Shown one piece after another: positions 16,759 through 52,018 of a stretch of DNA of 64,000 bases. The stretch is from Hyalella azteca (lineage: Eukaryota > Arthropoda > Malacostraca > Amphipoda > Hyalellidae). Under the pieces are notes generated by a model. The model did not search any database. It saw nothing but the letters and a program-made list of their open reading frames with translations, and was not told the origin of the DNA. Within the stretch, counting starts at the first letter, position 1, and every line of letters begins with the position of its first letter. Made by a program: the position numbers and the translations under genes. Where the stretch lies: assembly GCF_000764305.2 (NCBI RefSeq), contig NW_025932041.1, forward strand, positions 290,380 through 354,379. Reading direction: 5' to 3'.

Positions 16759-16969
16759 ATGATACTGTACGGCAACACAACCCTCACTCCTCTTCCCTCA
16801 TCCTCGTCTTCATCCTCTTGTTCCTCTTCATCCCCACCTTCATCCTCTTCCTCCTCCTCCCCCCATTCCCCCATCATCCCCATGGTCGGGGTTGCCGACA
16901 TCTTCGTGCGTGAGAGCAAAGACCTCAGCACAGCCCTCATCCCCGCCGGCCTTCACCCGCTCCTCATGT
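16759..16969 (+). CDS. Lim3: Lim3 first coding exon (predicted)
   Basis: An open frame with an in-frame TAA just upstream (16753-16755) starts at ATG 16759. It reads through a TCC/TCA serine run (about residues 14-36), then [20 protein letters not shown], and ends at CTCATGT before GTGAGT. The phase-1 end joins exactly to the LIM1 exon, giving [12 protein letters not shown]. Family members have about 25-35 residues before LIM1, so the internal ATG at 16882 (29 codons before the join) is the more natural start; the serine run would then be 5' UTR. The assignment rests on phase, donor quality and position, not on conserved sequence. Confidence 0.6.
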
Positions 16970-19900: not shown

Positions 19901-22900
19901 TCCCTTGTTTACCTGTAGTTTTTTGACACCGATAATATTCGAAACACTCTTAAACCAGTTAAGCGTTGTAGCTGAAATTTGTGACTATTACATTTAATTT
20001 CTTGACTAATATTGGCAATACTGAAAGGGACCAGATTTCGATTTCCGAGGACCAGATTTCAATTTCTTTCTGTCGATTGTTTAATAATCTAAACCCATTT
20101 CTTTTTATTTAACAGCGACGATCCAGAATGGAATGGATGATTTTACTATTATATAGAATAAAATTATTTATAATTTTATATGTATAACGTCATTTGTGTT
20201 CTCATAGAATTTAGTTATAGAAATGATAACAAGAATACAAGAGTTGCTTTCATTCTGTATTTAAGAACCCAAAAGTATTATTTACTAATAATTAGTGATA
20301 GAATTAACCGATGTAATAATATTTTATAATATCACTTGGTATATCTAGAGCAATACCAGTAATACCCTAATGCTGATACTATTAATAACAATGATAACAA
20401 TAGTACCAATACTAGTATAGAATTTATAATAGTATACTAATATTAGCATCTGGTGCCAATATTATTAGTAACAATTCTCCTTGTTAATATTTTCCCTTCA
20501 CCACTTGAATCATGATTTGCTTTATCAACATTTAGACTATACATATTAAAAGTTATAGTTTCGATTTTTCATGACTACGATTATGATTACAACAACGTAA
20601 ACCCTAAGTATAATAAAAAGCCTTTTTTCTTATTTTTTCACGACAATGATCATGACAACAATAACCAACCTCGAGACAACGTAGAATAAAAGTTTCTCTT
20701 TTGATTGTTCGTATGATTATGGGTCTAACGTCACGACTACTTAAGATAAAAGTTTTTTTCTTTATTTCGCAGCAACGATCCCGAAGTGCGCTGGCTGCAC
20801 CGAAGCTATCCTGGACCGCTTCATCCTGAAGGTGTTGGAGCGGACGTGGCACGCGCGCTGTCTCAAGTGCTGCGACTGCGGCCTGCAGCTCACCGACAAG
20901 TGCTTCTACAGGAACCAGCAGGTCTTCTGCAAGGAGGACTTCTTCAGGTGAGGCAGGCTGCTGGGACCAGCAGGTCTTCTGCAAGGAGGACCTCTTCAGG
21001 TGAGACTTGCTGCTGGGACCAGCAGGTCTTCTGCAAGGAGGACTTCTTCAGGTGAGGCAGGCTGCTGAGACCAGCCTGTCATCATCAAGAAACGTAAATA
21101 TTGTGGAATGAACGACCAAAAATGCTCGTTGAATCTGTTGAGAATAAAATCTAACAAGCAGCCGGAACTCGTGATAGTTTTTCATGACTAGCAAGCCAAA
21201 ATATAAGACGCGATCGTTGTAGGAAGTCCAGGAACACTTCCTGGCGCAGGATAAACTCGTTGCAGGAAGCGGTAGGTCTTCCCTAAGGAAGCCTGTAACG
21301 TTGGACTTCCGAAGCCCTTCCTGCCACTGGGCATTAGATCACATGACGGGGCTACTTATATAGTGCCCTGGGCTCGACACGCTTGGCAACCATAATATAA
21401 GTATTTAAAATTCGCCCATTTCAATATTTGATAAAAAAACTTATTTCAAAACTTGAAAGAGACGAATTTCAAAGAAATTATTTTTCTTATTCGTTTAAAA
21501 TATATCCTGGGTCCAAAATGACAAAACCACAAGCTGCTAAAAATTTTATATGCATAAATGGGTTTCCAGGAAATCATGACGGGAATTTTCTCTATTTTAT
21601 GGTGAGCCAAATTAAAGGAGATTAAAGGATGAATATTGAATATTATCTTGGGACACTCCTAGCGACACGATGACCCTACAGGATTGTGATTAGAACTAAT
21701 TAGGTTCAATGCATCAATAGACGACTATTGATTATTAAAATTTTCGAATGAAAGTATTATAAAACGAATGCTCTTTTATAAATGTGTATATCATTATTTC
21801 AAAATTAGAGTAGGTACCCTGATGGATTAATTGGCAGAGTTTAGTGGAACTTTTCTGCACTTTCAAGCTTAGTATATCATATACCATTAAACAAATGAAC
21901 ATTTTTACGTTAGGCTAGATTGAGTTAGTATGGCTGGGGCATTATATTTAAAAAAATTAAGAGTTCTTACATCCATCAATCTCTTTTCATGCTAAGCCCG
22001 CTACTCACAGATCATAATTCAGCTGCTAGGTGTACTTAGGACTCTATGTGCACTTATGCCGCTACGTGTACTTGGCCGCTACATTTACTTAGGCCGCTTC
22101 GTGTACTCAGGTCGCATCGTGTACTTTAAAGGTCGCATCGTGTACTTAGGCCGCTATGTGTACTTAGGTCGCTTCGTGTACTTAGGCCGCTACGTGTATT
22201 TGTCCGCTACGTATACTTGGCCGCTACATTTACTTAGGCAGCTTCTTGTACTTGGCCGCTATATGTACTTAGGTCGCTACGAGTACTTAGGTCGCTTCGT
22301 GTACTTAGGCCGCTTCGTGTACTAAGGTCGCTACGTGTACTTAGGTCGCTACGAGTACTTGCGAGTACTTGCATCGCTACTTATACATAAACATGTAATA
22401 AAAGTACGGCCCCTGAAGACCTTGCTTCTCGTTCCTCGTCAGGAGGTTCGGCACGAAATGCGCGGGATGCGACCAGGGCATCCCACCCACGCAGGTGGTG
22501 AGACGGGCACAGGACAACGTCTACCATCTGCACTGCTTCGCCTGCATCATCTGCCAGCGCCAGCTGAACACAGGCGACGAGTTCTACCTCATGGAGGACA
22601 ACAAACTCGTCTGCAAGACAGACTACGAGCAGGCGAAACAGCGGGGTTAGTATCTTGTCTTTTTGTAATAAACTTTAACAACTATTGTATTATTCAATGA
22701 TTTTTTTAGGTTTTGCATGCTGGTTTCTGCCCGTATTCAGTTTTCTTGGAAATTTTGTTAATCTTATTTGATTTTTTTCAATTTTTTTCACTATTTTAAG
22801 AGCTTCTATTTAGATTTTATGTGCTTTTACTGGAAATCTGCTAGCCTCCATTTTTATTTTCCAATCGATCTTCATTTTATAAAATGTTCAATTCAGATTC

Positions 22901-28900: not shown

Positions 28901-31900
28901 TGCGCTAGTGTGGAGAGAGATGTCTCTGGAAATGCGTGTTAGGAAATTCAGAAATGTATACATGTGTACAGGCGCGTGTGTATGAAGTGAGGGTTATTCT
29001 GTATAGGGGAATGAGGGAAGCGCCTACAGGGGGAAGTGAGATTAGTGCATTGAGCATATGTGGAGAGAAACACATATATTTTAAAGAGATATGTTTGATT
29101 ATTTGTGTGAAGGTTCATATGCTTCGAGCGTGCAGTGAATAATGCAAGCTATATTGTGTGTTGGTAGCAACGTACGTAATTTAACTGATAAAGGCTGCGT
29201 AATGTATATAGGACGCTGTTGCCCCTCACGCCAGCTGAGCTGGCAGCACCTACTTGCTGTGTAAGAGTACAAGTAGTTCTAAGTAGTACAAATACAACCG
29301 TACACTGCTGTGTACATGCAGTACACAGCACAGCAGGTGTAGATTAAAAGTCAAGATGCAGTGTCAGAGATTGGCAAGAGATGCAGAAAACATTCAATCT
29401 TATGATTGTTGCACAATGTTGCAGAATTGATTGACCGACGTAGTAATTTCAGCCCCTTAAGTTTGACAAACGTAATGCAATATTAAAGTTTTATAAAACT
29501 GAAAGCTTTGACTGACTGACAATATGCCCACATAATATAGAAAACCATACACAAACATTTGTTGACTTTTAAACATTAATCAATACATTAAATGCATCAT
29601 AGACTGACGACGTGCAATCTCGATTTGACACTTGCAGGAGCGACAGGCGATGAGGAAATGTACATTCAAAAATCTCTAAATTAAGTCAAAAATTGACAAA
29701 AATTTTGCCTGCATTGATTTGAAATAAAAAAGAGAATTGATTGACAAACAATATGCGATCACGGTACTGGTGGACAAAATTCAATCATGATAATGGCACA
29801 ACATATGCCATTTTATTTTGATACTGTTGGCAATTGTGCGTTAAGATTCGTTATTGAAGAGTTTATTGCTGAAAGACAATTAATGCATGGGCATCTATGG
29901 ACTGACAGACATCAAACAAATGCGGATTGAAAGAGCACATAAAATAAAACTTTATTTTATTTATTTAGTCATATTATTTTTTTATTTATTCTTATTTATT
30001 TGCAATCATGGATTGCTCGTGACCATTTGTGACTAAGTTACCATTAGAGAATGACACTATCATTAATAGTCGGACGAACGTGGCGAATGTTAAGAAAACT
30101 TTTTCGGTGAGGCACCTCAATCGTCTGAAACATACTGCCATCTTATAATTAAAGGAAAAAATTAATACTTGTACCAAGAAGCCACATTTGAATTTGAACA
30201 ATTCCCGAATAAAAGCAGACAATAATGGAAAAGCTCCTGCAGCAACAGTATCCATACAACAGAAAAGAAAGTATGAATCATTATTATAACTCTAGAGATT
30301 ATCCACAAAAAGTAGCAGAGACCGACAGTATATATTATGTCAAGTATATATATACCATCGAGCATATATACTTTAATTGACTTGCCACAGCAATGAGTGT
30401 CTACAGCCAACAGGAATGCAACAACAGACGTTAAAGAATAGGCACATTCAGTATAGGTTGACAGAAACTACCATCTTATTTAAAAATGGACGGATCACAG
30501 TGACCAAAGAACCGCTGACTTAATTAAGGACTGGTATAACTGGGCCTATACTTTCAAAAAAAGTTAAGAGATCGTAAGTTCATCAGCCAATCATTGGCGG
30601 CCTTTCAAGGAAAATCCACTAATCATGGACAAGAAAATATAGCGTAAGTACTTACGTTCACTTAGCGAGTTTTGAAAGTATGGCCCCTGGACTCTAGCAT
30701 GAGCCGCATGCAGCCGCGGCCAGCATATCAGCATATACCGCCAGGAGTAGCGCGCTCATCATTAGCCTAAGTTTGGGAGGTCTCCGTGGCTGATATTCGG
30801 TCGTTATATGCACCCCATGGCTCGGTCGGTGGGTACAGAAGAAGACTTGTGCAGCAAGAGGCCCAGAACTACAATCAATGCTCGTCAGCTGGAAAAGCTG
30901 AAGGCAGCTTACTCAGGCTGCTCCAAACCACCGAGACACGTCAGGGAACAACTCGCTTCTGACACCGGGCTGGACATGCGGGTCGTCCAAGTGTGGTTTC
31001 AGAACAGGTACGTGTCTTGTCGGACTGCTTGCAGGGCTTGCAAGGCCTGCAGGGCCTGCAGGGTCTTCAGGGCTTGTGGGATCAGCAGGGTATTCAATGC
31101 GTTTAGACTATATATATGAAGGGCCTGTTGTGTCTTCAGTGCTTGTGGGATCTGCAGGGTCTTCAATGCCTGCAGAGTGTGAAAGGGCCTGCAAGGACTG
31201 TTGGGTCTTTATGTTCTTTACTACTTGTTGGATCTGCGGGGTCTTCAATGTCTGCGGAGCGGGAGGGCCTGCAGGTCTGTTGGGTCTTTATTTAGTACTT
31301 GTGGGATCTGTAGGGTCTTCAATGCCTGCAGAGCGTGAAGGTCCTGCATGGTTTAATAGGTCTTCACTACTCGCAAGGCGGTAAGCTGGACCAGCAAGGC
31401 TTGCAGGGCCTTCAATGCTTGCAAGGCATGCAAAGCCTGCCAGGTTTGCTATGCCTTAAAATCTTGCAAATCTTGCAAGATTTTCGGGTTTTTCATTTAT
31501 TTCTGGTCTGCATGACCAGCAGTTCGAAGGCTTGCAGTGTCTTCTAGACTTGTAGACCTTGCAACGCTCACGAAATTCGTTTGGTCTGCAAGGCTTCTGG
31601 GACCACAATTTCTCAGAGATCCTTATATAATTTACTAGACCTGCAGGCCTCTGCAGAGCTTGCGTTCTATTTCAAATCTAGCGTTTATACTTGAGCCAAC
31701 CTCTGCTCTAAGACTTGCAGGCTTTGCAGAGTCGGTAAGCCCTGCTTGCAGATCTCGATCAAACCGAAAATTCTGTGTTGTTCAGTGACAGCGCGTCCTG
31801 CTGTTAGGTGGATGAGTGAGGTGCTAGTTCCAAACTAAAGACAAGGCATCATTCAAGCGTTATATTCAACTTGATAGGACTCAATTAATGTAATCTTCAT

Positions 31901-34900
31901 AGACGGAAGACAAATGTACCATTTTACTATGTTGCGATGTCTCAGCGATATTACTTTTCTCATGAGCAGTCGAAATAACTCATATATTTTTTTGAACTAT
32001 GTTAATTGAATTGCAAAATAGTCATCATTCTTTTTGACAATTAATACATTTTAAAGCTGTTATCTCTGTGATTTTTAACGACCGGCAGTGTCAATAAAGC
32101 AGTTCAAAGAAGATTAAACAGTTAAAAGAAAGTTATTAATTTGTTAATCGTTGGCTGGAACTAGTTCTGATAAATTAAAGATTTGTATAGAAACAATTTT
32201 GTCCAAAATTGTTGTCGCGTACCTCAATGAAAAGTAGTTTAAAATAAGAAATTTTGCAGACGTTCTGCGTTGATTATGGTTAATAATGGTAGAACGTATA
32301 TAACAAATGTATATTGTACATGCAATGATACCTACAAAAATCTTGAATCGCAGGTAAAGAAAAGTAGAGGAATTTGTTATATTATGAGCAGCCTCTCTCC
32401 CCCTCCCTTAATTCTATATTGCTGCTATTGTAATGCCAGCCCTCAACCCCCTCCCTGTACCACAAATAACCCCTTGAATCTGATGCCCTCATATCCCCTT
32501 GCCTGGATGTCATACCCTCATTTACTGTACATGCGAATGTGTGTATGTGCGTTTGAGTGTACATTTTTTGCATGATATATAATTATTATATATCTTTGTT
32601 CTTACATTATTATTATCCGTATTTTCAATGGATTTTCTTCGAATTTATCAATATTGCGCTTGGAATGTCTTGATTATGATTAGAATGTCGAGAGTGTATA
32701 TAACAAACGAAATTTCATACATTTATTAATGATGTTGTTGAAGAATTTTATATGGTTCAAAAATCTTATCTTCATTCTGAACCTTTAACTAAGTCAAACC
32801 AAATAATTTTTGTTTGTACTTATAAGTAGAGTAAACAATGTTTTCCTCTTGTTCAACATTCCAGGTACAATTTTGCATGCTTTTATTCCCTCTATACATT
32901 TTTATATATTCTTCCATTTATTCGCATTTTACATCCAAGGCCATTCGCCGCACGTTTTTTAACATTTCAAACTTTTTGCGATTTTACATCTCTTATTAAA
33001 AATTATCGCTTAAAAAAGTTCTTGTTGCACAGCCGCAAGATTCCTGAATGTTGACTTTATTATAAAAATTAAATAACGGTTGACAAAAACCTTGATAGGT
33101 TTAATTTTGAGCAATGGGCAAACTCGCATATTCTTCAAAATGCAAATCTTAATAAGGAAAAAAACAGCTGAGAAACATTCATTTGTCCACATTACAATTT
33201 TAGATAATTAAATTTATGTATATATTACAGTGAGAATTGAATAACCATAACTAATTATTTTAGCTAAAAAGCTGTCGTTACTTGGTTAGACCAATCTTTA
33301 TAATTCAATGTGTGACAAATTGATAGCAATAGCAGCAGGATAGTCGTACTAACTAATCACGTTATTCCAATGTCGTTGAATTGTTCAAAATTGACTATAA
33401 GAAACACCATTATTCTTACATTATTTTAGCATTAATTTTTCTAATTCTAGCTAGAAGCGAGAGAAATAAATTAAAATTTAACGGGTCATTTGTAGACGGC
33501 GACGGGACAAACAAACGTCCCCGTACCACCATCTCTGCGCGCCAACTGGAACAACTCAAACAAGCCTACAAAGACAGCCCCAAGCCCGCCAGACATGTTA
33601 GGGAACAGCTCTCACAGACGCTGGGACTCGACATGCGCGTCGTGCAAGTCTGGTTCCAAAACAGGTCAGTGCAATAAAAACATGGGAAATTTCAAGTAAA
33701 TTCATTAAATTTTTCATCGATAGCTACTTCACTATGAAGTCAATTAACAAGGTGAGTGTCCGCCAAGGTCTCCTTGTGCATCATATGTACCCAGTATTGT
33801 AATGGTTAACTTTGATGGTGCCCATTATACTGCACTTAAGATGAACAAATAATCGTTTCAAGATAAACAGGTCAGTGTATGTTACATGGCCTCCAGGTAT
33901 ACAAACGATACTGTGATGTTGAACATTAACGGAAACTATTATACTGCACCTATATCAAACAGTCTTATTAAGCCAAATATGTGATCTTAACAGCTCTTCA
34001 ATGAGCATCATGTGAGATTAATCCATGTTGGGACCAATTAAAATTATTCTAAGATACTCAGAGTCTCATTCATATTTTTAGACAGTCTTGCGAGGCTGAT
34101 AATGAAGTAAGCCTGTTAGAGTGCACATAAGAGATATGCAGACAGTGTCGTGAGTTTGCCTACAGGCAATTGTGAAATATTCCATTCGAAACAGTTGGAT
34201 ATGTACTGCACAAGAATCTTCTCAGTTACACAAAGCCTCCTGGCAGATGACGTTGAAACAACGTTCAATCGACGTTATTTAGACGTAAAATTGTCGGATG
34301 TATTAAATAATATCGAATTTTTTCTAAAACATCAACTTCAGTTACACTAAAGCCTCCTGGCAAATGACGTTGAAACAACGTTTAATCGACGTTATTTAGA
34401 CGTCAAATACCCGGAAGTATTAAATAATATAGAATTTTTTCGATAACATCAACTTCAGTTACACTAAAGCCTCCTGACAAATGACGTTGAAACAACGTTT
34501 AATCGACGTTATTTAGACGTCAAATACCCGGAAGTATTAAATAATATAGAATTTTTTCGATAACATCAACTTCAGTTACACTAAAGCCTCCAGTCATATG
34601 ACGTCGAAACAAACGTTTAATCGACGTTATTTAGACGTCAAATGCCCGGAAGTATTAAATAATATCCAATTGTTACGAAAACTTCAACTTCAGTTACACT
34701 AGACTAAAGCCTCCTGTCATATGACGTTGAAACAACGTTTAATCGACGTTATTTATACGTCAAATGCCCGGAAGTATTAAATAATATCGAATGTTTTCGA
34801 AAATTCCAACTTTGTTGGACAGGCGGGCGAAGGAGAAGCGTCTGAAGAAGGACGCGGGACGGTCGCGCTGGGGGCAGTACTTCAGGAGCATCAAGCCGGG

Positions 34901-37900: not shown

Positions 37901-40900
37901 CAACGAGCGCTTAAGCAGACACGAGTCAACGAGCGTGAGCAGATACGAGTCAACGAGCAGGACGCTGCTCGTCGCTGCCGTAATGGCGTCGCGGTCCGCT
38001 GGTCACAATCGATGTCGCCGCCGCGATTCCGAGTTTCTTGCGTCCGCGTCATAAATTGGCGCCTTTTTGCTCAGGACGCGTGCGCCTTATAGGCGTGCGG
38101 CGCTTGATTATATGCACTCTATGCGTATATTTTCACTAACACTGATTATACGCGCTCTATTCGTATATTATCGCTAACACTGATTATACGTTTTCTATTC
38201 GTATAATACCACTAACACTGATTATACGTTTTCTATTCGTATATTATCACTAAATCTGATTATACGAGCTCTATTCGTCTATTATCACAAAAAAACACTG
38301 ATTATATACGCGTTTAATGTTATAAAAGCACAAAGCCTAAACATTGATAATTATGCGCGATATATACTCCTATACGTATATCGCGTATATTAGTACACAT
38401 AATTCATTAAAAGTATTAATTCGTACATTCATTTTGCACGGGCATAATTCTTTTTTAATTTATTTTCAATGATGAATGTAACTTAGTGTATCTTAAATAA
38501 ATAATTCTAAATTAACCCCGCTTAATATTAAATTTGAGTCCATTTGCAGCAGATACGATAAATTAAGTTCGCCACGAACGACGTACCGAGGACATATTCT
38601 CGAATAAACAAATTAACCGAGGTTAAACTATAATAAAATATTTGCAGATTAATCATTTAATTGCCATTTGAGTTTTCATCTATACCTGATCATTGCTAGA
38701 ATACGAAACCATTCTATCGTCCCATTATCACACGACCATTATAGTAATGTGTAACATTAGAATGGTATTTTTAAAATAATTTTCTTCGTGAAATCCTTTA
38801 GGCCATTATATTTTCAGAATTAAGTTTCTATTAAACTAAGATACTTCGAGTTAGTATTTCATCATACTTTTTTCACCACCACTCATTATTTATCTGCAGT
38901 CATGCAAATATGCTTGCATCCAGCAACTCGGAATCACGGTTAGCATTTCAAAGCGCATAGTCCATGTAACGCATGACCGCGTCATGCGCATCAGTACTAT
39001 GATGAGTCTCGCTCAGCGATCAATATGCCTGGCGATATCATCATCAATATCATCACAATTATCATCACAATCATGAGCAGCACCGGCTGCCGTCCCCTCA
39101 CCTGCGATGCCAAAGATCATCACACCAGCGCGTCCGCTTCCGGTCCGGCAAATGCGATTTGGTCGATCCTGATTTCATCGGAGATTCCGGCACCAGTTTT
39201 TGCCGGGCTTGAATATAACAGAAATTTCCTTATGTTTCTGTCGGTCCTGACGGAGATTTTGTTTTCTTTTTACTGGCCCTCTTGGTTTATATGTGTATAT
39301 ACTGTACGTATAAGTCTTGATTTTAAAGGGACTTTCGCTTTATTTTTTCCGGTCTTTATATTAATCGAGGTTTCGTTTTGTTCTTGGAGGTCACGATATT
39401 AATGTTTTTTTTTCTGTAGTGAATTTAACGAAGATTTTATTTTTTCGGTTTGGATATTTGTTTCAATTTTTCTTACTCTATGACTTCAACCACAATTTCC
39501 TTTTTCATTGGAGATCGTGATTTTAACGAGGAAATCATTGTTTATGTCAGTCCAAATTTTAGCACAGAGCTTCTTTGTTCTCATTGGGCCCGATTTTGAC
39601 GGATTAAAAATTAAACAATAGTAAATATATTTCGGAAATAACATGAACGAGAAAAAAGACGTAAAGTTCGATTAAATCAAGTCGATAAGAAATTTTCTTG
39701 ACTTTTCTTCTGTTTCGATATATTGATATTGTGACTTAATTAGTTCCGGGTGTTTTTGCCCCTGTGGCTTTCAAACGAAATGCGCGTTCGCTGCTCATGC
39801 AATCGTGATGACGCTGGTATGCAACCTGGGAAATGACGCCTCCCATCTCAAATGACGAGAAAGAGCTTCATATTCATTTTACTTATTGATCATAATTATG
39901 AATTGTGTAAGAAAAATTGTGCCAACACATGATCGTCAATGCATCTATACAATTCTGTAAATTCATTAATGTTTAATTTAACTTTTCATTTCTTCCTGCG
40001 AACGGGAGCATCCCTTTTACTATACCTACCGTGTAACCAACGTGACATCTCTTATGACCTCATATTTCAATATTTTTGCAGCCTACGTAACATTATTACT
40101 AGTCAACGCCACATTATTACCTCTGGTAATCAATGTAGCATCATTACTTGTCAACGCCACATTATTACTCTGGGTAATCAACTTATACTAGTCAACGCCA
40201 CATTTTATTACCTTAGGTAATCAACGCAACATTATTATAAGCCAACAGCACATTTAACCTAGAAAAATCATCATCACATTTTAACACGCTTGTTATCAAC
40301 ATAACATTATTAACACTTATTTATATATTATATATTATCCCCACATTTATATATTTATAAAGCTGCCATTTCGTGCAGACGACGACATGCTGCTGGACTT
40401 GAGTGAAGGCTACCGCACGCCAGGCCCCCAGTCCATGTCAGACCTGGAGCCTGGCCAGACCACCATGAGTCCCCACATGCAGCACCACCACCAGCACCCT
40501 CCTCCCCCTCCTCCCCAGCACCCAGCACCTCCCCCACACTCAGCACTACAGCACCCACAGCAGCACCCTTTCCTGCACGGTGAGCAGCACTGCTAATATA
40601 ATGTAATGATGAAATATTATAATGATGATAAGTGCAATAATGATAAATAAGTGATAATGATAAAAATAATGATAAATAAGTGCAATGATGATATCGCTGC
40701 TAATATCATGTGATGATGAAATATTATAATGATGATAAGTGCAATAATGATAAATAAGTGATAATGATAAAAATAATGATAAATAAGTGCAATGATGATA
40801 GCACTGCTAATATCATGTAATGATGAAATATTATAATGATGATAAGTGCAATAATGATAAATAAGTGATACTGATAAATATAATGATAAATAAGTGCAAT

Positions 40901-41504
40901 GATGATATCGCTGCTAATATCATGTGATGATGAAATATTATCATAAGTGCAATGATGACGATATGATGTAAGTGAACTAAAATTTAAATAATGAGTGTAT
41001 TGATTAAAATAGAAGTTGAATAATAATTGTAAGTAATATGTTACTAAACACAAACACTCACGGCTGAATAAAATGTATACTATATAGGTTTCCGTTTGCC
41101 GCTCCATTTTTAACGCTAAAGATAAATGAAATGATTTCTTAGCGTTAATATCGGTAGCCTTAAATTACCTCATTATTTAACTGCCCTCATTTTTTAATGC
41201 GCTGAATTCATCAAGGCATATTTAATCAAAATTATTAAATTTATTGTATATTTAATTAGTATTATTAAATTTATTGCATGTTTAATTAGAATTATAACAT
41301 TTATTGCATATTTAACTAGAATTCTCAATTATTATACATGTTTAATTTACTATAAATTTCTGGCTGCAGGGGCTGGAACTCCCCCTTACATAGGAGGGGG
41401 TGCGGGAGGGGGATCTCATTCCCCAGGCGCCCCCCCAGCTCCCCCACACCCCCTGCTCTTTGCTTCTTTCGCTGACCACCTCAACCCCTACCAGAACCCC
41501 ATGA
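16759..41504 (+). CDS. Lim3: Lim3 / Lhx3-4 LIM-homeodomain transcription factor (gene span, visible coding exons)
   Basis: Predicted exons: 16759-16969, 20773-20947, 22443-22645, then one of 30839-31007 or 33451-33664, then 34823-34989, 40379-40579 and 41370-41504. All joins agree in phase and give about 420 or 435 codons before the last donor. Domain order is N-terminal leader, LIM1, LIM2, homeodomain, glycine-rich linker, His/Pro-rich tail. This is the Lhx3/Lhx4/Lim3 layout, with family hallmarks [52 protein letters not shown] and [13 protein letters not shown]. Family knowledge: nuclear DNA-binding regulator of motor-neuron and neuroendocrine identity, with LIM domains binding Ldb/Chip and Isl partners. 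The usual C-terminal YPDFP...SWL motif was not found. Introns hold many minisatellites and at least two dispersed repeats. Confidence 0.93.
17455..17760. repeat. 32-36 bp tandem repeat in Lim3 intron
   Basis: About eight copies of AGCCGCTGCAATAATATTAA followed by a variable CGGAAATTCAGG. Confidence 0.9.
17761..18659. other. Lim3 intron, AT-rich
   Basis: Strongly AT-rich sequence without recognised features. Confidence 0.6.
18690..19330. promoter_or_regulatory. GC-richer intronic block, candidate enhancer or conserved element
   Basis: About 640 bp of balanced-GC DNA inside the AT-rich first Lim3 intron. It begins with repeated CAGTATCGCTGCA and CCCCATTTCCCCCCAG words and continues through unique sequence. 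No frame has a recognised protein. Its composition contrasts with the flanks, as functional intronic DNA often does. Confidence 0.3.
19331..20772. other. Lim3 intron, AT-rich
   Basis: AT-rich intron with an AATAGTACCAATACTA-type run near 20340-20470. A weak diverged direct repetition (ATTTATTTAACAGCGACGAT at about 20105 resembling TTATTTCGCAGCAACGATCC at the LIM1 acceptor) suggests an old duplication of the LIM1 3' splice site region. Confidence 0.5.
20773..20947 (+). CDS. Lim3: Lim3 exon encoding LIM domain 1
   Basis: Acceptor TTTATTTCGCAG, donor CTTCAG before GTGAGG. Encodes [31 protein letters not shown] and FCKEDFF. All zinc ligands of LIM1 are present (CxxC, WHxxC, CxxC, CxxD). It closely matches Lhx3/4 LIM1 ([16 protein letters not shown]). 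The end of this exon is tandemly copied in the following intron. Confidence 0.95.
20948..21069 (+). repeat. Two extra 52-bp copies of the LIM1 exon end plus donor
   Basis: ACCAGCAGGTCTTCTGCAAG-GAGGACTTCTTCAG-GTGAGG begins at 20914 (exon), 20966 and 21018, period 52 bp. Each copy keeps a good donor (20948, 21000, 21052). Read-through from the first donor meets TGA at once (AGG TGA), and 52 is not a multiple of three, so use of the later donors breaks the protein. Confidence 0.95.
21070..22029. other. Lim3 intron, no feature
   Basis: AT-rich intron between the LIM1 and LIM2 exons. A GGAAGTCC/GGAAGC palindrome-like patch occurs at 21215-21320. Nothing else recognised. Confidence 0.6.
22030..22375. 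repeat. 18-20 bp minisatellite just before the LIM2 exon
   Basis: About seventeen copies of CGCTACGTGTACTTAGGC with length and base variants, ending about 70 bp before the LIM2 acceptor. Confidence 0.9.
22443..22645 (+). CDS. Lim3: Lim3 exon encoding LIM domain 2
   Basis: Acceptor TCTCGTTCCTCGTCAG, donor GCGGG before GTTAGT. A second AG three bases downstream would drop one Arg; the upstream one gives the family spacing FF-R-RFGTKC. Encodes [40 protein letters not shown] and [20 protein letters not shown]. The LIM2 zinc ligands are all present. The trailing G of the exon completes a codon with either alternative homeodomain exon. Confidence 0.96.
22646..23439. other. Lim3 intron, AT-rich
   Basis: No feature recognised. 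Confidence 0.6.
23440..23762. repeat. 25-27 bp tandem repeat
   Basis: About twelve copies of CATGTCATCCATATATTTTA followed by CACC. Confidence 0.9.
23828..24095. repeat. ~32-bp tandem repeat
   Basis: Copies of GTGCTCATGCCGTTTTGGCT followed by CATGCTATATT. Confidence 0.9.
24679..24828 (+). mobile_element. GCGC-type palindromic dispersed repeat, copy 3
   Basis: Same order as the copy at 4531: AGCGCATTTCCTC, GTGCTCGCCATG, GTCCGTCCGTACGTCCGTC, GAGAAAATGCGC, CTCACTGCAGTGGGTACTGA. Lies in the large Lim3 intron. Confidence 0.88.
24829..27264. other. Lim3 intron, no feature recognised
   Basis: AT-rich intron. Short frames here lack any recognised domain. Confidence 0.5.
27265..27505. repeat. ~86-90 bp repeat, three copies
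   Basis: Shared block: CCAACAA..ATTACAGT, GTAAAAGTGTCTTCTC, GAACCCTATAAAATTG, ATTATATGA. Confidence 0.9.
27506..28484. other. Lim3 intron, no feature recognised
   Basis: A GT-rich tract occurs at 28245-28470. Nothing else seen. Confidence 0.5.
28485..28925. repeat. 39-bp minisatellite
   Basis: About eleven copies of GAGAGAATTTGACTGTGCAG followed by AGACAGATGCGCTAGAGTG. Some 38-40 bp variants break the frame, so the open frames are by-products of the repeat. Confidence 0.95.
28926..30541. other. Lim3 intron, no gene
   Basis: AT-rich. A short perfect stem-loop TGCTGTGTAC-ATGCA-GTACACAGCA lies near 29303-29327. Confidence 0.5.
30542..30687 (+). mobile_element. GGCC-type MITE, copy 1
   Basis: About 146 bp with terminal inverted repeats: starts GGGCCTATACTTTCAAAA and ends TTTTGAAAGTATGGCCC. 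Flanked by CTGG on both sides (possible target duplication). Nearly identical to 43376-43522. Ends 150 bp before the acceptor of the first alternative homeodomain exon. Confidence 0.9.
30839..31007 (+). CDS. Lim3: Lim3 alternative homeodomain exon A
   Basis: Acceptor GGGTACAG, strong donor AACAG before GTACGT; 169 nt. It enters with two bases that complete the G left by the LIM2 exon (KQR-E), and ends with AG awaiting the next exon. Encodes [45 protein letters not shown] and [11 protein letters not shown], i.e. the N-terminal arm, helices 1-2 and most of helix 3. It is intact and in the same phase as exon B. Compared with B it lacks a long linker and differs at 12 of 51 homeodomain positions, mainly in helix 1 to helix 2. 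The short linker resembles vertebrate Lhx3/4. The acceptor pyrimidine tract is poor, which suits regulated use. Confidence 0.88.
31015..31760. repeat. Degenerate CTGCAGGG-type tandem repeat after exon A
   Basis: Irregular repetition of GCAGGGCTTGCAAGGCCTGC and GGGTCTTCAATGCCTGCAG words starting about 20 bp past the donor. Confidence 0.8.
31761..33450. other. Lim3 intron between alternative homeodomain exons
   Basis: AT-rich. No further exon or repeat recognised. Confidence 0.5.
33451..33664 (+). CDS. Lim3: Lim3 alternative homeodomain exon B
   Basis: Acceptor TTTTTCTAATTCTAG, donor AACAG before GTCAGT; 214 nt, same entry and exit phase as exon A. Encodes a long linker ([20 protein letters not shown]) then [40 protein letters not shown] and [12 protein letters not shown]. 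The linker with GSxxDGDxxNKRPRTT resembles what I recall of Drosophila Lim3, and [12 protein letters not shown] matches the canonical Lhx3/4 homeodomain, so B is probably the ancestral form. If A and B were spliced together the join would read AGC TAG, an immediate stop. Confidence 0.92.
34220..34815. repeat. 117-bp tandem repeat abutting the acceptor of the shared homeodomain exon
   Basis: Five copies with AAAGCCTCCTG at 34232, 34349, 34466, 34583 and 34704 (117 bp apart, last interval 121). Each holds TGACGTTGAAACAACGTTTA, TCGACGTTATTTAGACGTCA and an ACTTCAGTTACAC block. The array reaches to within a few bases of the acceptor at 34821-34822. Confidence 0.95.
34823..34989 (+). CDS. Lim3: Lim3 exon: end of homeodomain and linker
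   Basis: Acceptor TTTGTTGGACAG, donor GATGCAC before GTGAGT. Completes the homeodomain ([15 protein letters not shown]), then [32 protein letters not shown] and [30 protein letters not shown] is diagnostic of Lhx3/4. If neither alternative exon were used, joining LIM2 directly to this exon would meet TGA after seven codons. Confidence 0.95.
34990..36529. other. Lim3 intron
   Basis: AT-rich; two copies of GAGGCGGGAAAACGGGCGTA occur at 35703 and 35757. Otherwise nothing recognised. Confidence 0.5.
36530..36587. repeat. 58-bp near-perfect palindrome
   Basis: The arm ATGTGAGGTATAATAACGAT is mirrored by ATCGTTATTATACCTCACAT around the centre CACTCGAGTG. Only one base pair is mismatched over 29 bp per arm, with no spacer. 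Confidence 0.97.
36588..37639. other. Lim3 intron
   Basis: AT-rich with a short GC-richer patch at 36985-37090. No exon recognised. Confidence 0.5.
37645..37965. repeat. 24-bp minisatellite
   Basis: About thirteen copies of CGAGCGTGAGCAGACACGAG followed by TCAA. Later copies gain a T, giving 25 bp. Open on both strands only because 24 is a multiple of three. Confidence 0.95.
38098..38335. repeat. ~40-bp tandem repeat
   Basis: Five copies of CACTGATTATACGCGCTCTA followed by TTCGTATATTATCACTAA, some shortened. Confidence 0.88.
38336..40079. other. Lim3 intron with a GC-richer block at 39005-39200
   Basis: Mostly AT-rich. The block at 39005-39200 has ATCATCACAA repeats followed by balanced-GC unique sequence (CACCGGCTGCCGTCCCCTCA). 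It could be a conserved regulatory element; no protein is recognised. Confidence 0.4.
40080..40262. repeat. Degenerate ~23-45 bp tandem repeat before a Lim3 exon
   Basis: TCAACGCCACATTATTACCT, GGTAATCAATGTAGCAT and similar words alternate five to six times. Confidence 0.85.
40379..40579 (+). CDS. Lim3: Lim3 tail exon, His/Pro/Gln-rich
   Basis: Acceptor CATTTCGTGCAG, donor CACG before GTGAGC; phases match the exons on each side. Encodes [34 protein letters not shown], then a run of His and Pro ([19 protein letters not shown]). The tail after the homeodomain is fast-evolving in this family and I see no domain. The composition suggests an activation-type disordered region. Confidence 0.85.
40585..40962. 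repeat. ~107-110 bp tandem repeat starting just after a Lim3 donor
   Basis: Three and a half copies of ACTGCTAATATCATGTAATG, ATGAAATATTATAATGATGA and TAAGTGCAATAATGATAAAT. The first begins within 10 bp of the donor at 40580. Confidence 0.93.
41370..41504 (+). CDS. Lim3: Lim3 tail exon, Gly/Pro-rich
   Basis: Acceptor TTTCTGGCTGCAG. Encodes [40 protein letters not shown] and YQNPM. A strong donor (ATGA before GTGAGT) ends it at 41504. Reading on instead gives [12 protein letters not shown] and a TAA at 41543-41545, so this could also be the last exon. No downstream exon with the usual YPDFP/SWL ending was found before the next gene. Confidence 0.75.
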
Positions 41505-51281: not shown

Positions 51282-52018
51282 GTGGGGCAGAACCGATTGA
51301 GCAGTTTTCAGGCAAAATAAGAGTAATTGAGGTATATGAAGAAGAAAGTTTATTTTCCTCAAAGTTAGCATAACATACCATTTAAAATACTTATGTTTTG
51401 AAAACAATATTAGGAAGATGGTATCCATTAGCTACATCACACTGTTGGAGTGGTTCTTGGAAATTTCCTACAGCACATTCACCCATGTGGCAAGGTATTG
51501 CCATAACCTCTGCTGCAATAATCTGTTCCCTTTGCTGTGGTAGGGTGTGAGGGTGGCTTCTCTTTTAGATGTCCCCAAAGAAAGAAATTGCAAATGCTCA
51601 AATTAGGTGACCTTGCAGACCACTGTAAATCACCCCTCAGAGACACCAGATGTCTGGGAAACATGCGTTTCAAAACATTGAATGACATTCGGGCTGTGTG
51701 AGCTGTAGCCCCATCCTGCTGGAACCATTTGTCTCACAATGCTTCATTTTCAACAATGTTTTCCATCCTTTGCTGCAAGAAATTTTGCAACATTGCAGCA
51801 TAGCATTTGGAATTCACTGTCACGGTTACTACCTCTTCTGAGAATGACTCCAACAGTGTGTTGCAGCTAACGGCCACCATCTTCCAGCTATTGTTTTCAA
51901 AACATAAGTATTCTAAATGGTATGTTATGCTAACCTCGAGGAAAATAAACTTTCTTCTTTATGTTACTCCAATGCTCTCTTATTTTGCCTCGAAGCTGCT
52001 CAATCAGTTCTGCCCCAC
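51282..52018. mobile_element. Two mariner 3' ends joined head to head
   Basis: Inverted arms of about 140 bp (51282-51421 and 51878-52018), both ending GTGGGGCAGAAC outward. The left part carries, on the minus strand from about 51835 to 51390, a decayed mariner transposase C-terminal half (WFQQDGATAHTARMSFNVLK, WSARSPNLSICNFFLWGHLK, HLPNIVFKT then stop) with at least one internal stop. The right part carries on the plus strand (51851-51911) only the last residues LQQCVAANGHHLPAIVFKT. Not functional. Confidence 0.88.

What the first reader, a model, noticed from the sequence alone, without database searches (positions are those of the whole stretch)
30839..33664. Two mutually exclusive homeodomain exons in Lim3
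Exons 30839-31007 (A) and 33451-33664 (B) both encode the homeodomain arm, helices 1-2 and the start of helix 3, with identical entry and exit phase. They share 39 of 51 residues there and both are stop-free. A plus B together gives AGC TAG, an immediate stop; omitting both gives TGA after seven codons of the next exon. Only one-or-the-other use makes protein. Differences cluster in helix 1 and the helix 1-2 loop (YSGCSKPP versus YKDSPKPA) and in linker length, while the recognition-helix start is identical. This could tune DNA affinity or partner binding. I know of no described homeodomain exon swap in Lim3 genes.
Basis: partly seen in the sequence, partly recalled or inferred. Interest (0 to 1): 0.93.

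Follow-up and report, generated by a model that had tools for sequence, protein, structure and literature searches.

The report
Two alternative Lim3 homeodomain exons
An amphipod crustacean's Lim3 gene, which encodes a developmental transcription factor, carries two old, conserved versions of the exon for most of its DNA-binding domain, and gene models from related crustaceans suggest that both are used, so one gene probably makes at least two forms of this factor.

Summary
The window very probably holds Lim3 (Lhx3/4) of the amphipod Hyalella azteca. Exon A (30839-31007) is real. The B copy is real too, but its start is probably wrong: eight of eight other malacostracan B rows lack the 15 residues added by 33451 and fit an acceptor at 33496. 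B is then 33496-33664, 169 nt, exactly A's length; the linker-length difference and the 'AGC TAG' stop disappear. A and B share 39 of 51 homeodomain residues at nearly saturated silent divergence (dN about 0.23, dS about 1.8). A-type exons occur in a shrimp, a crayfish, a porcelain crab, a krill and three unnamed sequences. A and B each form a supported clade; a Hyalella-only duplication is rejected. Protein models join LIM2 to A or B, and each to exon C. Strict exclusivity is not shown: Penaeus monodon isoform X1 joins A to B, reading B in another frame for 35 codons, which completes the recognition helix and then stops; the window offers the same reading and stop position. Best reading: an ancient tandem duplication giving alternative homeodomains with the same base-contacting residues but different helix 1, helix 2 end and linker, plus a possible truncated A+B isoform. 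No transcripts were available.

The parts
16759..16969 (+). Lim3 first coding exon (MILYGN...), ends ATGT|GTGAGT
   Evidence: tblastn of the Penaeus P0001 N-terminus, E 8e-11; donor read
20773..20947 (+). exon L1, LIM domain 1
22443..22645 (+). exon L2, LIM domain 2, ends in phase 1 (CAGCGGG|GTTAGT)
30839..31007 (+). exon A, alternative homeodomain exon (linker, arm, helices 1-2, start of helix 3), 169 nt
   Evidence: relatives
33496..33664 (+). exon B, the other homeodomain exon, corrected start, 169 nt
   Evidence: comparison with 8 other B-type rows; splice borders
   Evidence: present in the Hyalella model P0228
33496..33601 (+). alternate reading frame of B after an A-to-B join: 35 residues RRRRDKQ...RQTC and TAG
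   Evidence: same kind of reading in Penaeus P0001
34823..34989 (+). exon C, rest of helix 3 (RAKEKRLKK...) and beyond
40379..40579 (+). downstream Lim3 exon D
   Evidence: resembles the C-terminal part of Eriocheir P0120 by eye
41370..41504 (+). downstream Lim3 exon E ([10 protein letters not shown]...)
   Evidence: the end 41504 was read by eye, scripts used 41501

Best explanation
The homeodomain exon of Lim3 was duplicated in tandem early in malacostracan evolution. The spliceosome joins the LIM2 exon to A or to B, and either to exon C, giving two full-length Lim3 proteins. They share the base-contacting positions (3, 5, 47, 50, 51; list recalled) and exon C, so the DNA motif is probably the same; they differ in helix 1, the end of helix 2 and the LIM-homeodomain linker, so stability, cooperativity or partner contacts probably differ. 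When both exons are joined the frame shifts and the product stops 35 codons into B, either as a decay substrate or as a short isoform. Shown: two conserved, constrained copies with matching splice phases. Inferred: regulated choice and functional difference.
For: Equal length (169 nt each, B from 33496) and phase. Between A and B 23 of 38 same-residue codons differ silently; LWL85 dN 0.226, dS 1.84. A-type exon in 7 rows besides the window: P0001 Penaeus, P0002 krill, P0003 Cherax, P0005 Petrolisthes, P0230-P0232 unnamed; Hyalella A matches them at 47-52 of 57 residues but its own B at 40 of 57. Tree: A 99/98, B 99/99; Hyalella A with Hyalella B as one clade rejected, p-AU 0.004. Cherax P0003 joins A to C; P0009, P0014, P0120, P0122, P0132 and P0279 join B to C. 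The reading QNRYV, consistent with a donor AG|GTAYGT as in the window, follows A in 4 of 4 read-through models (P0005, P0230-P0232). A's acceptor has the weakest pyrimidine tract of the 8 acceptors scored (0.42), as regulated exons often have (recalled).
Against: No transcript was available here. The relatives are database proteins whose names mark many as predicted. A-to-C joining rests on one model (P0003), whose C-terminus is itself odd; A-to-B joining is in two models; Oratosquilla P0013 continues after B into yet other sequence and P0011 ends with B, so models vary. No splicing device enforcing exclusivity was found: borders are GT-AG, the A-B intron is 2,488 nt, and no striking paired elements appeared. 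Among the rows that I saw A was not found in the stomatopod, the brachyuran crab or the isopods; lists were capped at 120 of 309 and 120 of 401, so losses and missed models cannot be told apart.
Confidence: 0.72

Rival explanations
1. A is an optional exon placed before B. A-to-B joining makes a truncated LIM-homeodomain protein: homeodomain A is completed by B read in another frame (RRRRDKQ in place of RRAKEKR) and a short tail replaces the C-terminal region. B is thus a dual-coding exon.
For: Penaeus monodon X1 (P0001) ends so, and its tail is DNA-compatible with the B of isoform X3 over all 36 positions. The window reading is open for 35 codons with the same stop position; krill P0002 also has a 35-residue tail beginning RRRR. 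Homeodomain profile matched over all 57 positions in P0001 and P0002. Predicted helix 3 of P0001 runs through the alternate frame, pLDDT 86 in 241-250, and the homeodomain fits LHX4 5hod_D at 1.1 A over 57 columns. Window/Penaeus tails 21 of 35 identical against a simulated mean of 15.6, p 0.03; both stopping at codon 35 in 0.035% of simulated pairs with this gene's codon usage. PBX1 exon-7 skipping is a known truncated homeodomain isoform that escapes NMD (PMC11701043, passages read).
Against: A 35-codon opening is not rare (34% of simulations with this gene's codon usage, 4% with flat usage), and the basic start RR.R.K arises in 6-17% with own usage and 2% with flat usage. Simulations ignore shared ancestry, so the stop position may only reflect conserved codons. 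The krill tail fits neither krill B that I held. The fold used an alignment whose other rows hold the normal helix end. The joined transcript may be an NMD substrate.
Confidence: 0.3
2. A is a poison exon that lowers Lim3 level: its inclusion with B causes frameshift and decay, and its protein is unimportant.
For: A+B frameshifts to an early stop, with exon C and later exons downstream of the stop.
Against: A's protein is conserved at 47-52 of 57 residues between Hyalella and the seven other A rows and the A-B dN/dS ratio is about 0.12; a poison exon needs no conserved homeodomain reading. Cherax P0003 joins A to C in frame.
Confidence: 0.1
3. A is a decaying recent duplicate or assembly artefact.
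For: The Hyalella model of this spot in the database (P0228) is poor.
Against: A-type exons in seven other database rows; clade support 99/98; Hyalella-only duplication rejected; strong constraint.
Confidence: 0.02

Closest known systems
Lim3 / LHX3 / LHX4 LIM-homeodomain genes
   Same: Two LIM domains and an Lhx3/4-class homeodomain; LHX4 is the best solved match of exons A and B, and LHX4/LHX3 of the Penaeus A form P0001
   Different: Two alternative exons for most of the homeodomain; no A-type row was seen among the non-malacostracan proteins that I fetched, 14 of which are in the tree. Proteins cannot exclude unannotated exons
FOXP1 exons 18/18b, mutually exclusive exons in a forkhead domain (PMC11701043, passages read)
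   Same: Alternative exons swapping part of a transcription factor's DNA-binding domain
   Different: There critical forkhead residues and the preferred DNA motif change; here the base-contacting positions are the same in A and B
PBX1a/PBX1b (PMC11701043, passages read)
   Same: A splicing frameshift truncates the protein but keeps the homeodomain, comparable to A+B
   Different: In PBX1 an exon is skipped and the homeodomain is retained; here the homeodomain itself would be finished in another frame of its duplicate
Human mutually exclusive exon clusters (PMC5740500, passages read)
   Same: Similar neighbouring exons in one frame; joint inclusion may frameshift
   Different: The homeobox gene named in the passages seen, CUX1, was not described there as a homeodomain swap

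Membership tests
Lim3/Lhx3/4 | LIM1-LIM2-homeodomain with Lhx3/4-class homeodomain | tested here: met
   Exons L1, L2, A/B, C; LHX4 homeodomain best match for A and B
Mutually exclusive exon pair | Neighbouring exons of similar sequence | tested here: met
   40 of 57 residues, 111 of 169 bases, tblastn 3.5e-23
Mutually exclusive exon pair | Same or similar length and same reading frame | tested here: met
   169 and 169 nt with B from 33496 (214 nt from 33451); same phases
Mutually exclusive exon pair | Each exon is joined to both outer exons | tested here: inconclusive
   Only through relatives' protein models: L2-A-C in P0003; L2-B-C in P0009, P0014, P0120, P0132
Mutually exclusive exon pair | The two are not joined, except as a frameshifting product | tested here: inconclusive
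   P0001 joins A to B with frameshift and early stop; P0002 has a similar tail from a B-type exon
Mutually exclusive exon pair | Splice-site incompatibility or steric block as the cause | tested here: not met
   GT-AG borders; A-B intron 2,488 nt; exclusivity, if any, would rest on regulation or decay
Mutually exclusive exon pair | Splice-junction reads | not testable with these tools
   No RNA data held

The most novel reading that the evidence does not exclude
Malacostracan Lim3 makes three DNA-binding forms from one duplicated exon pair: homeodomain A, homeodomain B, and a truncated A form whose recognition helix is completed by exon B read in a second frame, kept open since before amphipods and decapods separated. 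B would be a dual-coding homeobox exon.
Probability: 0.27. Interest if true: 0.82.

Novelty: new variant of a known kind. Interest (0 to 1): 0.62.

Why it matters
Lim3/Lhx3 is a motor-neuron and pituitary regulator (recalled). A homeodomain exon swap shared by amphipods, krill and decapods would be a natural experiment in altering homeodomain surfaces outside the base-contacting positions, testable in Parhyale, an amphipod used for transgenesis (recalled). The 15/37 pair (K with D in 8 of 8 A rows; Q or R with T, A or S in 9 of 9 B rows) gives a concrete hypothesis: different inter-helix bonding and stability (that 15-37 is a common salt-bridge pair is recalled).

Tried and rejected
Rejected: exon B from 33451 as the main form (its extra residues are in none of 8 other B-type rows). 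It may still be a Hyalella alternative acceptor. Rejected: recent Hyalella-only duplication (p-AU 0.004). Not resolved: whether A and B are sisters; the best tree does not group them, and holding them together is not rejected (p-AU 0.129), on only 57 columns with an unsettled bootstrap. A third test, B with the barnacle row, was uninformative (p-AU 0.423). Led nowhere: a search for paired intron elements gave 11 inverted pairs with no clear docking design. A second fold, Cherax A+C (P0003), gave a confident homeodomain like that of P0001 and adds little. Krill P0002 was at first taken as the same A+B form as Penaeus; the compatibility test showed that its tail fits neither krill B sequence held, so it counts as weaker support. 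Literature: nothing on a Lim3 or other homeodomain exon swap was seen in the result listings (no hits; no hits); these cover open-licence papers only, lists were capped, and apart from passages of PMC5740500 and PMC11701043 I read listings.
Full report
Identity. The reading frames at 20773-41504 form one gene: LIM1, LIM2, homeodomain and further exons of Lim3/Lhx3/4. A first coding exon at 16759-16969 matches the N-terminus of Penaeus monodon Lhx3-like (E 8e-11). The A open frame is 100% identical over the 58 residues searched to a Hyalella azteca protein, P0228, whose other parts also match window translations by eye, so the window is very probably that amphipod's genome. The final C-terminal motif of other malacostracan Lim3 proteins was not found in the window.

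Exon A. 30839-31007, 169 nt, with AG and GT borders, enters after one base of a codon and leaves after two. It codes for EEDLCS and then homeodomain residues 2-52. Its best solved-structure match is LHX4 (E 1.4e-21), and it passes the Pfam homeodomain cut-off by itself (60.8 bits against 22.9).

I compared eight other B-type rows: Cherax P0009, Penaeus P0011, Oratosquilla P0014, Eriocheir P0120, krill P0122 and paralogue P0132, isopods Armadillidium P0279 and Idotea P0241. For the alignment a script took the six residues before KRPRT from every row, so the equal lengths there are by construction; the evidence for the start is what stands further upstream. In P0009, P0011, P0014 and P0132 the LIM2 end runs straight into EGDATNKRPRT; in P0120 five residues (GMSIK) lie between, as they do before A in Cherax P0003 (GMSLK), so they belong to the LIM2 side; P0122, P0279 and P0241 have unrelated residues upstream. 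None has the 15 residues of the window's 33451-33495. In P0279 and P0241 the residue before EGDAT is alanine, as reading through an AG acceptor at this place would allow (GCA-GAG; inferred from residues). The 33451 acceptor has the better pyrimidine tract (0.68 against 0.47), and its residues are in the Hyalella model P0228, so it may be a lineage-specific alternative. With 33496 A and B have the same length, and the LIM-homeodomain linker is six residues in both.

Age and selection. Of 38 codons coding the same residue in A and B, 23 differ silently; LWL85 gives dN 0.226 and dS 1.84, NG86 gave no finite dS, YN00 failed. Lists were capped: one search showed 120 of 309 matches, 120 of 658, 120 of 401. 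I fetched 53 proteins (24, 9, 20). A-type rows besides the window's own P0228: P0001, P0002, P0003, P0005, P0230, P0231, P0232. The tree holds 29 fetched rows and the two window exons; 24 fetched rows were left out: P0228, P0013 (same species and exon as P0014) and 22 rows that by eye were neither A- nor B-type. Hyalella A agrees with the seven at 47-52 of 57 residues and with Hyalella B at 40. The tree puts the 8 A rows on one side of a branch (99/98) and the 9 B rows likewise (99/99). Pairing Hyalella A with Hyalella B is rejected (p-AU 0.004); A plus B as one clade is not rejected (p 0.129), though the best tree does not show it. So the duplication precedes the split of amphipods from decapods and krill; an origin on the malacostracan stem is likely but unproven. 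B has T/A/S37-L38 where A and the 14 outgroup rows have D or E37-T38, while B keeps P24 (7 of 9) and A27 (8 of 9): each copy has changed in its own way.

What differs. Ten columns separate A and B with no shared residue: linker columns 2, 4 and 5 (homeodomain -3, -1, 0), helix 1 positions 15, 18, 21, 22 and helix 2 end positions 36, 37, 38 (helix limits from the model of P0001). Positions 39-51 are identical in A and B of the window. The list of base-contacting positions (3, 5, 47, 50, 51) is recalled. I therefore expect similar DNA motifs and different stability or partner contacts; this is inference.

How it is spliced. No RNA data were held. Protein models give: LIM2-A (Penaeus X1 P0001, krill P0002, Cherax P0003), LIM2-B (Penaeus X3 P0011, Cherax P0009, Oratosquilla P0014, Eriocheir P0120, krill P0132), A-C (P0003), B-C (P0009, P0014, P0120, P0122, P0132, P0279), A to a B-type exon (P0001, P0002). 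P0011 ends with B and P0013 runs from B into other sequence. Isoforms labelled X are, as I recall, NCBI predictions guided by transcripts, so this is supportive but not proof.

The A-B join. With B from 33496 the window reads [43 protein letters not shown]. Penaeus X1 ends [35 protein letters not shown], also 35 residues, and a DNA sequence exists that gives both this and the X3 B exon. Krill P0002 also has 35 residues beginning RRRR, but is incompatible with either krill B sequence I held. Pfam's homeodomain is matched over 57 of 57 positions in P0001, against 51 of 57 in P0011, which stops at the end of B. The predicted P0001 homeodomain fits LHX4 5hod_D over 57 columns at 1.1 A, though other rows of the alignment hold the normal helix end and may help the model. 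Simulations with random synonymous codons: open for 35 or more codons in 34% (this gene's usage) or 4% (flat usage); both of a pair stopping at 35 in 0.035% and 0%; identity 21 of 35 against a mean of 15.6, p 0.03, given both open. The basic pattern RR.R.K arises in 17% (window peptide) and 6% (Penaeus peptide) with own usage, and about 2% with flat usage. Shared codons by descent are not modelled, so I treat this as suggestive only.

Verdict. A real, old pair of alternative homeodomain exons, probably new for a homeodomain gene as far as the listings reach. Exclusive use is plausible but unproven, and joint use has a specific annotated form. FOXP1 18/18b is the nearest precedent in kind (PMC11701043, passages read); the MXE criteria are from PMC5740500 (passages read); PMC9741552 was searched for homeobox and homeodomain and held neither term.

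Noticed in passing
20914-21075: A 52-bp tandem repeat (3.1 copies) triplicates the end of the LIM1 exon together with its 5' splice site; possible exon ends at 20947, 20999 and 21051, and 52 is not a multiple of three.
   Followed up: partly
34222-34803: A 117-bp tandem array (4.9 copies), with ACGTT-type palindromes by eye, ends 19 bases before the end of the exon C acceptor.
   Followed up: no
31142-31348: A 78-bp minisatellite (2.7 copies) begins 135 bases after exon A, in an intron stretch full of CTGCAGGG/CTTGCAAGG-like repeats by eye.
   Followed up: no
P0003 and P0120 (Cherax, Eriocheir): Five extra residues (GMSLK/GMSIK) after the LIM2 exon, before A and before B respectively, probably an alternative donor; in the window the same reading would meet TAG.
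   Followed up: partly
P0132, P0002 (Meganyctiphanes): Krill seems to hold a divergent Lim3 paralogue (P0132), and the tail of P0002 implies a further B-type exon whose normal frame differs from conserved B at seven of 35 positions tested.
   Followed up: partly
1887-2474, - strand: Open frame with two matches to the peritrophin-A chitin-binding domain (CBM_14, E 2.7e-12).
   Followed up: partly
51479-51733, - strand: Fragment that looks like a Tc/mariner-type transposase by eye; no Pfam match at 0.001.
   Followed up: no
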